From NCBI GenBank assembly GCA_014376695.1, contig JACMRA010000005.1, positions 1-38,421 on the forward strand: a stretch of 38,421 nt of DNA, in the 5' to 3' direction. The position numbers and the translations under genes were made by a program. Of the stretch, positions 1,151 to 36,575 are shown piece by piece (position 1 is the first letter of the stretch; each line of letters begins with the position of its first letter). The notes beneath the pieces are model-generated. The model was not told where the DNA came from. It searched no databases and saw nothing but the letters and a program-made list of their open reading frames with translations. Source of the stretch: Minisyncoccota bacterium. GTDB taxonomy: Bacteria > Patescibacteriota > JACMRA01.

Positions 1151-1179
1151 TTGACATTTGTATTTATCTATGCTATTAT
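1151..1179 (+). promoter_or_regulatory. Consensus sigma70-type promoter with extended -10
   Basis: TTGACA (1151-1156), a 17-base spacer, then TATTAT (1174-1179) preceded by TG one base upstream (extended -10). Transcription should start near 1186. This is among the closest matches to consensus in the window, and it drives only the short unit that ends at the terminator near 1364. Confidence 0.85.
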
Positions 1180-1213
1180 TTGAATGCATATCTTAGCTTA
1201 AGGAGTCAAATAG

Positions 1214-1273
1214 ATGGAAACCCTACGATTGGTCAAATTCTTCGTAGTCTGGGCTTTCTTGGCCCTTTTATAG
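1214..1273 (+). CDS. 19-residue hydrophobic peptide (possible type I toxin-like)
   Basis: ATG at 1214 follows a good Shine-Dalgarno AAGGAG (1200-1205) with 8-base spacing. The frame reads METLRLVKFFVVWAFLALL and stops at TAG. It has a short charged N-terminus followed by a continuous hydrophobic stretch, long enough to insert in a membrane. Size and composition resemble Ibs-type toxins (18-19 residues) of type I toxin-antitoxin systems, which are also made from structured transcripts. It could instead be a leader peptide or a chance frame inside an ncRNA. No convincing antisense promoter was found on the opposite strand, only a TATAAA with a poor -35. Confidence 0.4.
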   Translation: METLRLVKFFVVWAFLALL

Positions 1274-1341
1274 ACTGCACTAAGCTCTCTGGAATTTTTG
1301 CCCGTAACACGGCAACCCAGAGACTTAGACTAACCATTTTT

Positions 1342-1364
1342 CTCACCCTAAAGGTGAGTTTTTT
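1342..1364 (+). terminator. Rho-independent terminator of the small transcript
   Basis: A 6-bp stem CTCACC/GGTGAG around the loop CTAAA is followed by TTTTTT. The same CTAAA loop flanked by C and G runs recurs in the terminator after dnaA. Confidence 0.9.
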
Positions 1365-2265: not shown

Positions 2266-2628
2266 ATGACTCAAAACCCCCTCAAAAACCACCAATACAT
2301 TATAGCTGACCATATTAGGCCAATATGCTTCATTGTGGCAGACGGAGTCCTTCCGAGTGGCAAAGGTCGCGGATACATCCTCAGGCGGCTTATGCGACGC
2401 TTAATGGCCTCTAGCCTTGCTCTGGGAATCGATATTAAACAAGATGAGTATTTTGCTGAGTTGGTTGATAATATTGTCGAGGTCTATCGGGGAGTTTATG
2501 ACGAAGTTGGGGCGTGCCGAGAAACTATTGTTTCTATCTTATTGCAAGAATCCGTAAAATACCAAAAAGCTATTACCACCGGCGAAAAAGAATGGGCCAA
2601 AATCTTTAAGACCGGTCAAGTTAGTTAA
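2266..2628 (+). CDS. Alanyl-tRNA synthetase-related fragment (end of catalytic domain plus helical domain)
   Basis: The 120 residues match an internal part of AlaRS. 'IIADHIRPICFIVADGVLPS' corresponds to the conserved 'VIADHIRAxxFxIADGVLPS' stretch, followed by 'GKGRGYILRRLMRRL' (normally N-x-G-R-G-Y-V-L-R-R-I-x-R-R) and the start of the tRNA-recognition helices. Everything before roughly residue 220 of a normal AlaRS (class II motifs 1 and 2, the activation pocket) and everything after about residue 350 (editing and C-Ala domains) is absent, so it cannot charge tRNA by itself. The stop is one base before the start of the next gene, so the two are probably co-translated. It may be a relic or a repurposed RNA-binding piece; a full alaS should exist elsewhere. 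Confidence 0.75.
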   Translation: MTQNPLKNHQYIIADHIRPICFIVADGVLPSGKGRGYILRRLMRRLMASSLALGIDIKQDEYFAELVDNIVEVYRGVYDEVGACRETIVSILLQESVKYQKAITTGEKEWAKIFKTGQVS

Positions 2629-2629
2629 T

Positions 2630-3937
2630 ATGGCCAAATACGATCTTGAGCAACAGTTCTTGAAAGAATATAATCGGCTTAACCCAAATCAAAAGCTAGC
2701 CGTAGACACGGTGGAAGGCCCCGTTATCGTCAACGCGGGACCTGGAAGCGGAAAAACCCAAATCCTAGCTCTTCGAATTGCCAATATCCTTCGAAAGACC
2801 GATACAAATAGTCGCAACATTCTTTGTTTGACCTTTACCGATTCAGCCGCGGCCAATATGAAAGAGCGTCTTTACAAAATGATTGGGGCCGAATATACAA
2901 AGCTGAATATTTTTACTTTTCACTCTTTTGCAACTGATATAATTGCCAAGAACCCAAGTAGTTTTTTTGGCGGTAATAGCTTTACCCCGATGGATCCAAT
3001 CACGGGCAACCAAATCCTCAATGCCATCTTTGATATTATCCCCTATGGCAACCCGCTTTTTGGCAAGTATCAAGATAGTTATACCTATATCAAAGACACC
3101 AAGTCCCAAATCAGCAATCTCAAAAAAGCTGGTATTTCGCCCATGGAGTTCAAGGCCCAATTGGTAGAACTCCAAGAGTTTTATATTCGAATTAATCAAT
3201 TGCTTGGATTTTTCGGTGGGCGAGTTACTGCCAAAATGTATAATAATATTCAACAATTGGTAACTGAGATTAACGAGATTGATACACCTACGCCCATTAG
3301 TAGCCCGTCGTATCAATACAAAAAGCTTCTTCTTGAAACTCTTAGCCCGCTTTTGGTGGAGTCGGCAAATGACAAGCCAAGTACAAAGCCTCTGACCGAG
3401 TGGAAAAAAAGATTTATTATCAGTCTATCGGAGACCGAAATAGTCCTAAACGACACTCAAATCATCGGCAAAAATTTGGCTGTGGCTGATATTTATCAAT
3501 CTTACCAGAATAAATTGTGGGAGCTTGGATTTTTTGACTTTGAGGATATGTTGGTCGAAGTCTGCAAAACTCTCGCGGATGAGAATAATTTTTGGCTCAA
3601 AAGTTTCTTGCAAGAACAGTATCAATATATTTTGATTGATGAGTTTCAAGATACCAACGGTATTCAGCTCAAATTGGTTAATTATGTAATTGACAGCGGG
3701 CTAGAAAACCCCAATATTATGATAGTTGGAGATCCAGACCAGGCTATCTTCAAGTTTCAAGGCGCCGGACTGACTAATCTGAGCCAATTTAATCTCAAAT
3801 ACCCCAAAGCCGAGATAATCAATCTAGTCGATAACTACCGCTCGCACCAAGCAATACTTGATCTGGCTCACGGACTAATAGAGAATAGTGGACAGAGATT
3901 GGGTAACTGCCAAAAGCTGACTAGTCGGGTTGACTGA
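2630..3937 (+). CDS. UvrD/Rep-like SF1 helicase, N-terminal half only
   Basis: At 435 residues it covers domains 1A and 1B of a UvrD/PcrA-type helicase. Visible motifs in order: Q motif 'LNPNQKLAV' (~20), Walker A 'AGPGSGKT' (~37), Ia 'LTFTDSAAANMKER' (~65), 'TFHSF' (~93), Walker B 'LIDEFQDT' (~335), III 'IVGDPDQAIFKFQGA' (~365) and IV 'VDNYRSHQAI' (~395). It then ends at a TGA after 'KLTSRVD', so domains 2A/2B and motifs V-VI needed for unwinding are missing. A piece with the expected continuation lies far away at 31623-32261. The motor half could still bind ATP but should not translocate. It starts one base after the AlaRS fragment. It is most likely a broken gene. Confidence 0.85.
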   Translation: MAKYDLEQQFLKEYNRLNPNQKLAVDTVEGPVIVNAGPGSGKTQILALRIANILRKTDTNSRNILCLTFTDSAAANMKERLYKMIGAEYTKLNIFTFHSFATDIIAKNPSSFFGGNSFTPMDPITGNQILNAIFDIIPYGNPLFGKYQDSYTYIKDTKSQISNLKKAGISPMEFKAQLVELQEFYIRINQLLGFFGGRVTAKMYNNIQQLVTEINEIDTPTPISSPSYQYKKLLLETLSPLLVESANDKPSTKPLTEWKKRFIISLSETEIVLNDTQIIGKNLAVADIYQSYQNKLWELGFFDFEDMLVEVCKTLADENNFWLKSFLQEQYQYILIDEFQDTNGIQLKLVNYVIDSGLENPNIMIVGDPDQAIFKFQGAGLTNLSQFNLKYPKAEIINLVDNYRSHQAILDLAHGLIENSGQRLGNCQKLTSRVD

Positions 3938-4070: not shown

Positions 4071-5177
4071 GTGAATCTGGGATTAGCCTATGATAGAATT
4101 AAGAAGCTGTGGGGAAAGCTAGGTTCTGATAACTTAGAGATAACACGAGAGGAAGCCGTTGGCATAATGACAAGAATAGATCCATCTATTCCGGAAGAGG
4201 CTCATATCGCGAGTCGAGACTGCCAAGGCACGTCGCTTACTTTGAAAAATCTCGAATCTGTCACAAATGGCACTGTGACTCACGAATTAATCCATACCAT
4301 CGCAATACACAATCAAACAACTCGAACAGATTTGATCTTATTAGGTGATTTCGAGGGTGTAGAAAGAACCATAAAATTAAAGCGAAAAGTCTCACAGGTT
4401 GGTATTCGACTAGAATCTTGCGATACAATACAATTTGGCAACTTCGCCCAAAATAAAGAAGTCTATGAAGATATTGTTAACTTATTAAGTTCAAATCAAT
4501 TGCCAAAAATAAAAGAGAAATATCCCACTCAATATCATATATTGAACAATTTCTTTGATCAAAAACCCGGCAATAAAGAAAAATTTATGCTAGGTATTAT
4601 CCAAGATTGGAATTGGTGGGATGAGGATATTCAGGGTTTTGGAGTGCAATTTCAGATGGAGCATTTCAACGGGAATTTCAATGAGGCAATTACTGTTTTG
4701 TTGACTATTTTTGCAGACAATCCCAGTGGTAACTTTGCTCTACCGACCAAACAATACACCGATGCTGGCTACCATCACGAACCGTGGATGCAGGCGCTGT
4801 TGAATAAATACAAAAAATTAAATAATTCAGATCGATTAGAATTAATCAAGTTACTCCACAAAGCCATCACCACTGAGCATCCTACAGTTGAGTTTGAAGA
4901 TATTAGCTATAAACTAGCCTCAAAATACTTTCTGGAAATCGACAATATAGAAAGTCGGGGAACTCATAGAAATAATGGCGAGTTTATTGAGGTACCAAAA
5001 GAAATGATTTTTAGTAATAATTTGCTAATTGGAGTATTTGCGAGTTCACTCATAATGTTTGGATTTGGAATGGCTAAATGGGATAGTCGTGGTCAAATAG
5101 AGCAATTAGAAAATCAGATAAAACAGGAGAGGTTAGATAGGAATGACACTAACTCGTTGCCTCCAATTCTTAGATAA
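4071..5177 (+). CDS. Membrane-anchored zinc metallopeptidase-like protein (HELIH), probably phase-variable or frameshifted
   Basis: The 368 residues counted from GTG 4071 contain 'VTHELIHTIAI' (~75), a perfect HExxH zinc motif. About 120 residues later 'NFNEAITVLLTI' offers a plausible third, glutamate, ligand as in gluzincins. Near the C-terminus 'NNLLIGVFASSLIMFGFGMA' is a single membrane helix, followed by a charged tail rich in Gln and Glu that could form a short coiled coil. There is no signal peptide at the visible start. The GTG is a poor start: the nearest purine-rich GAGG is 17 bases or more upstream. The true start is likely ATG 3965 in another frame (see that entry). No known peptidase family was recognised beyond the zinc motif. 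The gene sits between the truncated helicase and a convergent glycosyltransferase. Confidence 0.7.
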   Translation: MNLGLAYDRIKKLWGKLGSDNLEITREEAVGIMTRIDPSIPEEAHIASRDCQGTSLTLKNLESVTNGTVTHELIHTIAIHNQTTRTDLILLGDFEGVERTIKLKRKVSQVGIRLESCDTIQFGNFAQNKEVYEDIVNLLSSNQLPKIKEKYPTQYHILNNFFDQKPGNKEKFMLGIIQDWNWWDEDIQGFGVQFQMEHFNGNFNEAITVLLTIFADNPSGNFALPTKQYTDAGYHHEPWMQALLNKYKKLNNSDRLELIKLLHKAITTEHPTVEFEDISYKLASKYFLEIDNIESRGTHRNNGEFIEVPKEMIFSNNLLIGVFASSLIMFGFGMAKWDSRGQIEQLENQIKQERLDRNDTNSLPPILR

Positions 5178-33998: not shown

Positions 33999-36575
33999 CT
34001 ATCTGGTCGTAATAATTTCTGGGGCCTCGACTTTTTTGATATCTTGAACTTTTATCCCCGGGAGTTTGAGCTTCTTTTCTTTGACGATAATTTCTTTATT
34101 TTTATCGAGGAAAATTTCCATATTGAGATTAGTTGGATTATCTAGTAGGTATTCGGCAATTGGATTGTGAATTATATTAGCAATTAGAGACTTAACTTCC
34201 CGAGCTCCATATTCGAGTTTATTATTTACTTGGCTAACTATAAAACCGACAATATCATCTTTAAATGTGATTGTTCTACCATTTTTGAGCAGGTGATTTT
34301 GGAGGATTGATAATTCTTTGTGGATAATTTGAGTCAGCACAGTCACGCCAATTGGTCTGAAAACAATTTTTGAGGTAATACGGCCCAGAATTTCTGGCTT
34401 GATCGTCTTTTCGACTTCGTCCATTACATTTTTTTTGATGGTTTGATAATCCTGTTCCTCAGCACTTGAAAGATTGCTAAATCCAATTTTGGAGGCAAAC
34501 TTGTTGAGTTGATTCCGCCCAAGATTAGAAGTCATAAATATCATGGCGTGGCGACATGAGACAATATTTCCCTTGGAGTCGGTAATCTGCCCCTCTTCCA
34601 ACATCTGGAGTAGGATATTCAAAATGTCCTTGGATCCTTTTTCAATTTCATCGAATAATATAACCGAATAGGGATTTTCTCGCAGGAATTCGGTTAGTCT
34701 TGGCTTATCTTCGTAGCCTACATACCCAGCTGGCGCCCCAATAAGCGAAGAAATAGTGTGCTTCTCGCTAAATTCACTCATATCCAACTTTAGCAAATAT
34801 TTATCAAGGCTCCCATACAATTCTTTGGTTATGATTTTGACTAATTCGGTTTTGCCGACTCCTGTTGGCCCAAGTAACAAGAATGAGGCAATTGGACCCT
34901 TGTTTGGATTGACGCCAGTGTAGGCTCGTTTGAGAGCAGAAGTTACAAGCGAATTAGCCTCTCCCTGACCAAAAATTTGGTTATTAAGAGTATTCTCAAG
35001 GTATTTGACCTGAGTAAATATATTAGAAGTGACCCGAACGACTGGTACATTACTAATCATCGAGACGGTGTGTTCAAGCAGCTCTTGATTGACTGTTGGC
35101 TTGGGTTTGGAGTCTTTGGTGCTTTGGTTAAGGACTGATAATTGGTTTTCAAGTGACTTTTGTTCGTGTTCAAATTTTTTGGAAAGTTCGAAGTTTTGCT
35201 CCAAAATAGCTTGATTTTTTTGCTTAATTAATTCCAAAATTTCACGTTCAATCGAGACCCAAGTCTTTTCCTTTTCTTTGTCATCGGTTTCGACCCGGCT
35301 TTGGGCAATGCGACACTTTACCAAGCACTCATCCATAATATCGATAGCCTTATCAGGGAAAAATCGCTCCGGAACAAATCGCTCAGCCAAATCAACTAAT
35401 TTTGGCACCAGCTCATCAGGGAATAAAACGCCGTGATAATTTTCGTAGCTGGACTTAACACCGCGAAGGATACTTATAACTTGAAATTGATCTGGTTCAT
35501 CGAGTTTGACGGGTTGGAATCTTCTTTCGAAGGCTTTGTCTTTTTTGATTAATGTTCGGTATTCTTCCATCGTGGTCGCGCCAATAACGCTAACTTCGCC
35601 CCGAGCAAGGTACGGCTTAAGAATATCTGGCAAAGTAGGCCCACCTGACGAACCAGCACCAGCACCGACTGCACTATGCAATTCGTCAATGAATAATATT
35701 ACATTTTTGGCCTCGATAACCTCCTCGATAATTGTCTTAATTCGCGACTCGAATTCACCGCGAAACATAGTTCCGGCCAGCAGCGAACTGACATCGAGCG
35801 ATAGGATTTGCTTGTCTTGAAGCCAGATTGGAACTTGTTTATCCAAAATTCGTTTAGCAAGCCCTTCGATTGCGGCTGTTTTACCAACGCCGGGTTCGCC
35901 AAGTAAAATTGGGTTATTTTTGGTTTTTCGAGATAAAATTTGGATGATTCGCTCGATTTCTTTTTCTCGCTCCACTAGCTCAAAGCCAATATTTTGTTTG
36001 ATTTTTTTGTTAAGATTTATAGTGAAGTAGTCCAGGTAACTTTGAGGCTGGTTACGCGAAGTTTTGAGTTTGGGATTCTTTTCGCCGACTTTTACACCTT
36101 TTTTGTAGTTTTCGAATACGGTTAATAAAATATCCTTAATTCGGCCGCTGTTTTCCTCATTGAGATTCATTAGCTTTTGACCGTGGGAATTAGTAGTATC
36201 TAATATTCCATAGATAAGATGCTCGAGGCCGATATGACTGTAATTATAAGTCTCGGCTATTCTAATGGCTTTATCTAAGCAGTTCTGTAATTCTTCCGTA
36301 ATTTTAGGGAAAAATAATGTACCGCTGTTGGCTGGATCTTCGTCGGTTTTGCTGTGTTCTTTCATTGTCTCTATACCGACACGTCGAATAACTTCGAGTA
36401 ATTCAGTATTGCTCAGTCCGTCAATAAAAGCCATTTGAAACGGCAGGTCATTTTGAGGTTGAGATAATATACCGTAAATAAGATGATCTGAACCAATATA
36501 ATTATGGGTGAGATCTTGAGCGACTTGTTGAGCTAAATCAAGGGCATTTTTGGCTCGGGTATCAAATTTTAACAT
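33999..36575 (-). CDS. clpC: ClpC/ClpA-type AAA+ unfoldase
   Basis: 858 residues, full-length. Two Clp-N repeats (1-150, '[20 protein letters not shown]', '[14 protein letters not shown]'); NBD1 with Walker A '[18 protein letters not shown]' (~228) and Walker B '[12 protein letters not shown]'; a middle region with a UVR-like helix ('[18 protein letters not shown]'); NBD2 with Walker A '[14 protein letters not shown]' (~568), Walker B '[10 protein letters not shown]', 'TSNLGRNQL' and the arginine finger region 'IKPEILGRI'. The tripeptide 'IGF' in 'ASKIGFSNL' fits the loop that docks on ClpP. Expected job: unfolding proteins for ClpP degradation. clpP is not in this window. Confidence 0.95.

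What the first reader, a model, noticed from the sequence alone, without database searches (positions are those of the whole stretch)
1151..1364. Isolated transcript encoding a 19-residue hydrophobic peptide: type I toxin-like unit or new structured RNA
A consensus promoter with extended -10, an ideal Shine-Dalgarno, a 19-codon hydrophobic frame (METLRLVKFFVVWAFLALL), four strong stems and a terminator are packed into 214 bases. Peptide size and composition are those of Ibs-type toxins; RNA length and independence are also those of 6S RNA. Either way, nothing larger in this unit is encoded, so the cell invests a strong promoter in this small RNA.
Basis: partly seen in the sequence, partly recalled or inferred. 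Interest (0 to 1): 0.72.

Follow-up and report, generated by a model that had tools for sequence, protein, structure and literature searches.

The report
Tiny membrane-peptide gene, toxin-like RNA
A free-standing 180-base transcript carries one 19-residue membrane-peptide gene followed by a strong RNA hairpin, and three look-alikes in related small-genome bacteria suggest a recurring toxin-like unit, although no antitoxin partner could be found.

Summary
Window 1151-1364 contains an 11/12 sigma-70 promoter with extended -10, a Shine-Dalgarno (SD), a 19-codon hydrophobic frame, a strong post-stop hairpin (z -5.2) and an intrinsic terminator, with no other gene in the unit. It was found once in its own genome. 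Sequence similarity barely reaches relatives, but the architecture recurs: promoter, SD, 19-26 residue hydrophobic frame, structured 3'UTR, terminator, twice in family genome G004 and once in G003. With promoter >=10/12, a descriptor for this order finds only these four in 2.05 Mb on both strands and none in reversed controls. None of the 10 strict promoter-plus-SD sites read outside G004 was such a unit. Peptide sequences are not conserved; size, hydrophobicity and position are. Rfam, including 6S, finds nothing. Best reading: a small mRNA for a single-helix membrane peptide, held inactive by pairing of its 5' and 3' ends, as in AapA or Hok type I toxin mRNAs. The coding unit is well supported; lock and toxicity are inferred. 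SD masking is not better than chance and no convincing antisense promoter exists, so membership in type I toxin-antitoxin systems is not established. A harmless small membrane protein is the main rival.

The parts
1151..1179 (+). Sigma-70 promoter TTGACA-17-TATTAT with extended -10 (TGC before TATTAT); TSS predicted about 1185-1187
   Evidence: 11 of 12, TG before second hexamer; first 14 bases identical in the G004 look-alike
1200..1205 (+). Shine-Dalgarno AAGGAG, 8 nt before ATG
   Evidence: sequence; an SD is present in all four units
1214..1273 (+). 19-codon frame METLRLVKFFVVWAFLALL, mean Kyte-Doolittle 1.68, one predicted hydrophobic helix
   Evidence: counterparts MHHTGVILVLFSIGMLTIAVYCLTQ, MNHRIFRLVLIILIFLFQIIQRFLDN, MFESVLWIFIVSNVNFINS
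1280..1328 (+). Post-stop hairpin CTAAGcTCTCTGG...TTGCC/GGCAA...CCCAGAGACTTAG
   Evidence: -20.5 kcal/mol, z -5.2
1193..1202 (+). Possible 5' arm of an end-to-end closing helix (TTAGCTTAAG), overlapping the SD
   Evidence: by analogy with GTAGTTTAGTAAG in both G004 units; not better than shuffles in the window RNA itself
1324..1333 (+). Possible 3' arm of the closing helix (CTTAGACTAA); its CTTAG is alternatively part of the post-stop hairpin
   Evidence: inference
1342..1364 (+). Intrinsic terminator

Best explanation
The locus is a monocistronic mRNA gene for a 19-residue hydrophobic peptide that inserts in the inner membrane. The strong promoter makes the RNA constitutively. The full-length transcript is kept poorly translated because its 3'UTR folds back on the 5' end, over the SD and start codon; removal or remodelling of the 3' end (or loss of a repressor RNA) would free the ribosome site, and the peptide would then depolarise the membrane, as in AapA/IsoA and Hok/Sok. 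Well supported by sequence: transcription-unit signals, coding frame, strong 3'UTR structure, recurrence in the family. Inferred: 5'-3' lock, toxicity. Not found: an antitoxin.
For: Promoter, SD, frame and terminator. The same order in G004:C2:29669-29901, G004:C10:11139-11370 and G003:C7:3970-4214, at non-syntenic places. With promoter >=10/12 the descriptor finds exactly these four in 2.05 Mb of three genomes on both strands and none in reversed controls. All four RNAs fold better than shuffles (z -4.4, -3.6, -6.9, -2.6), and in the two G004 RNAs the excess lies in the whole RNA rather than in the 5'UTR+ORF. Predicted SD pairing to C/U-rich 3'UTR segments >0.95 for GGAGG in G004a and for the first SD bases in G004b; SD and AUG pair with the 3' end at 0.85-0.94 in the window RNA. 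The AapA3 mRNA (225 nt, 30-codon-scale ORF, 5'-3' end pairing with an anti-SD, active only after 3' trimming) has this anatomy (PMC6733600). IbsC is a 19-residue and ShoB a 26-residue membrane toxin; such toxins lack sequence conservation (PMC8309996).
Against: No convincing antisense promoter (best in the window: TTCTAA-17-TAAAAT, 8/12, TSS about 1365). Replacing the stop-to-terminator segment by shuffles masks the SD about as well (fraction <= observed 0.71, 0.32, 0.19, 0.91), and the 5':3' duplex beats shuffles clearly only in G003 (0.485, 0.205, 0.115, 0.000). In the window RNA the predicted SD pairing uses the terminator stem and competes with termination. The G003 SD is predicted accessible. 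The SD is strong and nothing shows toxicity.
Confidence: 0.42

Rival explanations
1. A constitutively made, non-toxic small membrane protein (a regulator or subunit of a membrane complex, of the KdpF/CydX/MgtS sort) with an ordinary stabilising 3' hairpin; no RNA switch and no antitoxin.
For: Strong promoter and SD without a detectable antisense partner; SD masking and most of the 5':3' pairing are not better than chance; the 5'UTR+ORF is not unusually folded.
Against: A regulator with a fixed protein partner should keep its sequence, but the four peptides share no sequence. Two diverged copies in G004 and different genomic neighbours look more like a mobile or selfish unit. Pfam finds nothing for the two peptides long enough to scan.
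Confidence: 0.33
2. A structured regulatory RNA (6S-like RNA or a trans-acting sRNA) in which the SD-like site and frame are incidental.
For: Length about 180 nt, own promoter and terminator, excess structure.
Against: No Rfam match at gathering score, and only chance-level ones up to E=10; 6S model silent in G000-G005 although it gives sub-threshold hits elsewhere in the phylum. The hydrophobic SD-led frame recurs in all four units, 19-26 codons, starting 26-48 nt after the predicted TSS. No RNA sequence or consistent stem register is shared.
Confidence: 0.15
3. The four units are unrelated: ordinary strong promoters that happen to be followed by short hydrophobic frames and terminators.
For: blastn similarity is confined to the promoter region, and G000 and G003 share no RNA sequence with the others. 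At looser settings (promoter 8/12) real and control counts are similar in G000 and G003.
Against: At promoter >=10/12: four hits in 2.05 Mb x 2 strands against none in reversed controls. The two G004 units share promoter, 5' leader GTAGTTTAGTAAG and a post-stop AACTSCA, so at least these are paralogues.
Confidence: 0.1

Closest known systems
AapA/IsoA type I toxin-antitoxin (Helicobacter pylori)
   Same: Short mRNA (225 nt for aapA3) with own promoter and terminator, one short hydrophobic frame, SD predicted or shown to be masked by a C/U-rich 3' segment through 5'-3' end pairing (PMC6733600).
   Different: AapA has a demonstrated antisense RNA (IsoA) over the message; none is detectable here. 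No sequence similarity was found; the lock here is predicted and not significant against shuffles.
Ibs/Sib and ShoB/OhsC (Escherichia coli)
   Same: Peptide size (19 and 26 residues), single hydrophobic helix, almost no charged residues (PMC8309996).
   Different: Sib and OhsC antitoxin RNAs have no counterpart detected here; the structured part here lies in the toxin-like message itself.
Hok/Sok
   Same: End-to-end pairing of the message as the suggested translational lock.
   Different: Hok is about 50 residues with a coupled mok frame and Sok antisense RNA; none of these is seen here.
6S RNA (RF00013)
   Same: Length, independent promoter and terminator, possible closing stem.
   Different: No covariance match; contains a recurrent SD-led frame.

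Membership tests
Type I toxin-antitoxin system | Toxin gene encodes a short (<60 residues) hydrophobic peptide with one membrane helix | tested here: met
   19 residues, mean Kyte-Doolittle 1.68; 19-26 residues in the three look-alikes
Type I toxin-antitoxin system | Antisense or trans RNA antitoxin that pairs with the toxin mRNA | tested here: inconclusive
   No minus-strand promoter >=10/12 around any of the four units and none at a conserved position; the weak 8/12 candidates prove nothing. A trans-encoded RNA was not searched for.
Type I toxin-antitoxin system | Overexpression of the peptide is toxic | not testable with these tools
   needs expression
Type I toxin-antitoxin system (AapA/Hok kind) | Full-length mRNA translationally inert through 5'-3' pairing that sequesters the SD | tested here: inconclusive
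   Predicted in the window RNA and both G004 RNAs but not in G003; SD masking not better than with shuffled 3'UTRs
6S RNA | Match to the RF00013 covariance model | tested here: not met
Any curated Rfam family | Match at gathering score | tested here: not met
   only two tRNAs in the window
Ibs toxin family | Recognisable sequence similarity to Ibs proteins | not tested
   A 19-residue peptide is below the 20-residue limit of the family search; the 25- and 26-residue look-alikes had no Pfam match

The most novel reading that the evidence does not exclude
A new, rapidly diverging family of type I toxin-like genes, in which a self-masking mRNA replaces or accompanies the antisense antitoxin, in a phylum of small-genome bacteria from which the papers searched report no type I systems.
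Probability: 0.3. Interest if true: 0.75.

Novelty: new variant of a known kind. Interest (0 to 1): 0.5.

Why it matters
Type I systems are reported from only three phyla plus one cyanobacterial case, and that narrowness is blamed on search methods tied to known sequences (PMC12390103). A family of hydrophobic micro-peptide mRNAs in a deep-branching lineage of about 1 Mb genomes, found by architecture rather than sequence, would widen the range and give a direct test: express the peptide and see whether cells stop growing. It would also show tiny genes that gene callers miss in reduced genomes.

Tried and rejected
Rfam at gathering score and E<=10: nothing. 6S model over 38 relatives: no hit in the family. 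blastn of the RNA at family, order and phylum level: only promoter-sized matches. TetR neighbour as a synteny anchor: absent from the family genomes. The glycosyltransferase of the window as a probe for named relatives in genome contigs: no close relative. A G004-type promoter-leader pattern in viral contigs: none. A covariance model was not built: MAFFT cannot align the four RNAs in register, and the apparent ungapped G004a/G004b match puts the hairpins out of register, so covariation counts would mislead. I first took the end-to-end pairing as shown; shuffling the 3'UTR demoted it to inference. A second descriptor hit at window 36177-36354 (14-residue frame, 9/12 promoter) was set aside as within the control rate.

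Full report
What is there. Window 1151-1364 holds a compact transcription unit. The promoter is TTGACA-17-TATTAT with an extended -10 (11 of 12), and the terminator is CTCACCCTAAAGGTGAG followed by T6. The transcript starts about 1186. AAGGAG lies 8 nt before an ATG at 1214, which opens METLRLVKFFVVWAFLALL and ends with TAG at 1271-1273. It is the only short frame with an SD in the transcript. Upstream is a DUF11-repeat surface protein ending at 1079 with its own terminator at 1106-1129; downstream a TetR-type regulator runs the other way, 2061-1465, with its own terminator at 1407-1390. So the frame is the only product of the unit; there is no downstream gene for it to lead.

Structure. The RNA folds to -52.9 kcal/mol, better than shuffles (z -3.6; -4.4). 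The excess is in the segment between stop codon and terminator, a hairpin at 1280-1328 (z -5.2); the 5'UTR+ORF is ordinary (z -0.1).

Relatives. The genome is a roughly 0.96 Mb draft (78% complete) with five other genera held in its family and order. The size and the many other 0.5-2 Mb genomes in the phylum suggest Patescibacteria; this is inference, since no tool named the organism. blastn reaches only the promoter, but one such hit, G004:C2:29667, proved to have the same order of parts: SD, GTG frame MHHTGVILVLFSIGMLTIAVYCLTQ, hairpin, terminator. Using it as query gave a second G004 unit at C10:11138, MNHRIFRLVLIILIFLFQIIQRFLDN. A promoter-plus-SD pattern over the family gave a third, G003:C7:3970, with a 12/12 promoter and MFESVLWIFIVSNVNFINS. 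The other matches of that pattern which were read were ordinary genes, a tRNA or chance sites. Genomic neighbours differ in each case.

Is that more than chance? I wrote a descriptor: promoter, SD-led frame of 13-45 codons starting within 70 nt of the TSS, terminator within 260-280 nt. I ran it on nearly all of G000 and on parts of G003 and G004, 2.05 Mb in all, both strands, with reversed sequence as control. Requiring a promoter of at least 10/12 and a hydrophobic frame leaves exactly the four units and no control. With weaker promoters (8/12), real and control counts are alike in G000 and G003 but not in G004 (31 against 7), so the strict class is what carries weight. A stricter promoter-plus-SD pattern over 58 genomes gave 10 sites outside G004 (nine in other families of the phylum, one in G001); none of those read was such a unit. 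This suggests, from a small sample, that the units are concentrated in this family. The descriptor was written after seeing the first three units, so their recovery is not independent; the absence of other hits and of control hits is.

How it may work. The size and hydrophobicity of the four peptides are those of membrane-acting type I toxins such as IbsC (19 residues) and ShoB (26), a group known for lack of sequence conservation (PMC8309996). The anatomy of the message resembles the aapA3 mRNA: 225 nt, 5'-3' end pairing, an anti-SD, translation only after 3' trimming (PMC6733600). In both G004 RNAs the SD is predicted to pair with C/U-rich 3'UTR segments next to a closing helix formed by GTAGTTTAGTAAG and CTTACTTTAGCTAC or TTTACTACTAC; in the window RNA, SD and AUG pair with the 3' end at 0.85-0.94, partly with the terminator stem. 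However, shuffling the stop-to-terminator segment masks the SD about as well, and the 5'-3' duplex is clearly better than shuffles only in G003. The lock is therefore a hypothesis. No strong or position-conserved antisense promoter exists; the best in the window is 8/12 with a TSS about 1365.

Not 6S. There is no Rfam match. The 6S model gives sub-threshold hits in four other genomes of the phylum but none in the six family genomes. A recurrent SD-led hydrophobic frame is not a property of 6S RNA.

Verdict. Expressed unit coding for a tiny membrane peptide: likely (about 0.8). Type I toxin-like in function: about 0.4. Membership in type I toxin-antitoxin systems: not established, because the antitoxin was looked for in cis and not found, and toxicity cannot be tested here. 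It is novel in place, since the papers searched list type I systems only from Proteobacteria, Firmicutes, Tenericutes and one cyanobacterium (PMC12390103), and two literature searches for such systems in this lineage found no relevant paper.

Noticed in passing
window 2266-2628 (+): A 120-residue free-standing frame matches only positions 269-373 of the 552-position class II alanyl-tRNA synthetase domain (tRNA-synt_2c, E 1.6e-24); looks like a fragment or relic next to a helicase gene.
   Followed up: no
window 2630-3937 (+): UvrD/REP-type helicase frame of only 435 residues that carries just the N-terminal domain; possibly truncated.
   Followed up: no
window 4071-5177 (+): 368-residue protein with an HELIH zinc-protease-like motif and a C-terminal hydrophobic stretch; no Pfam match.
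   Followed up: no
L038 1501-1660, L039 1501-1653: Sub-threshold 6S RNA hits (E about 1e-7, 42 bits) with rod-like folds and a shared CACCCACCTxGATTA segment in other genomes of the phylum: likely 6S RNAs that the Rfam model under-scores; L040 and L041 are weaker.
   Followed up: partly
L049 1490-1540: The second G004 unit has stacked promoters (overlapping TTGACA boxes 12 bases apart), unlike the others.
   Followed up: no
window 36177-36354 (+): A weaker descriptor hit (9/12 promoter, 14-residue frame [14 protein letters not shown], terminator); within the control rate.
   Followed up: partly
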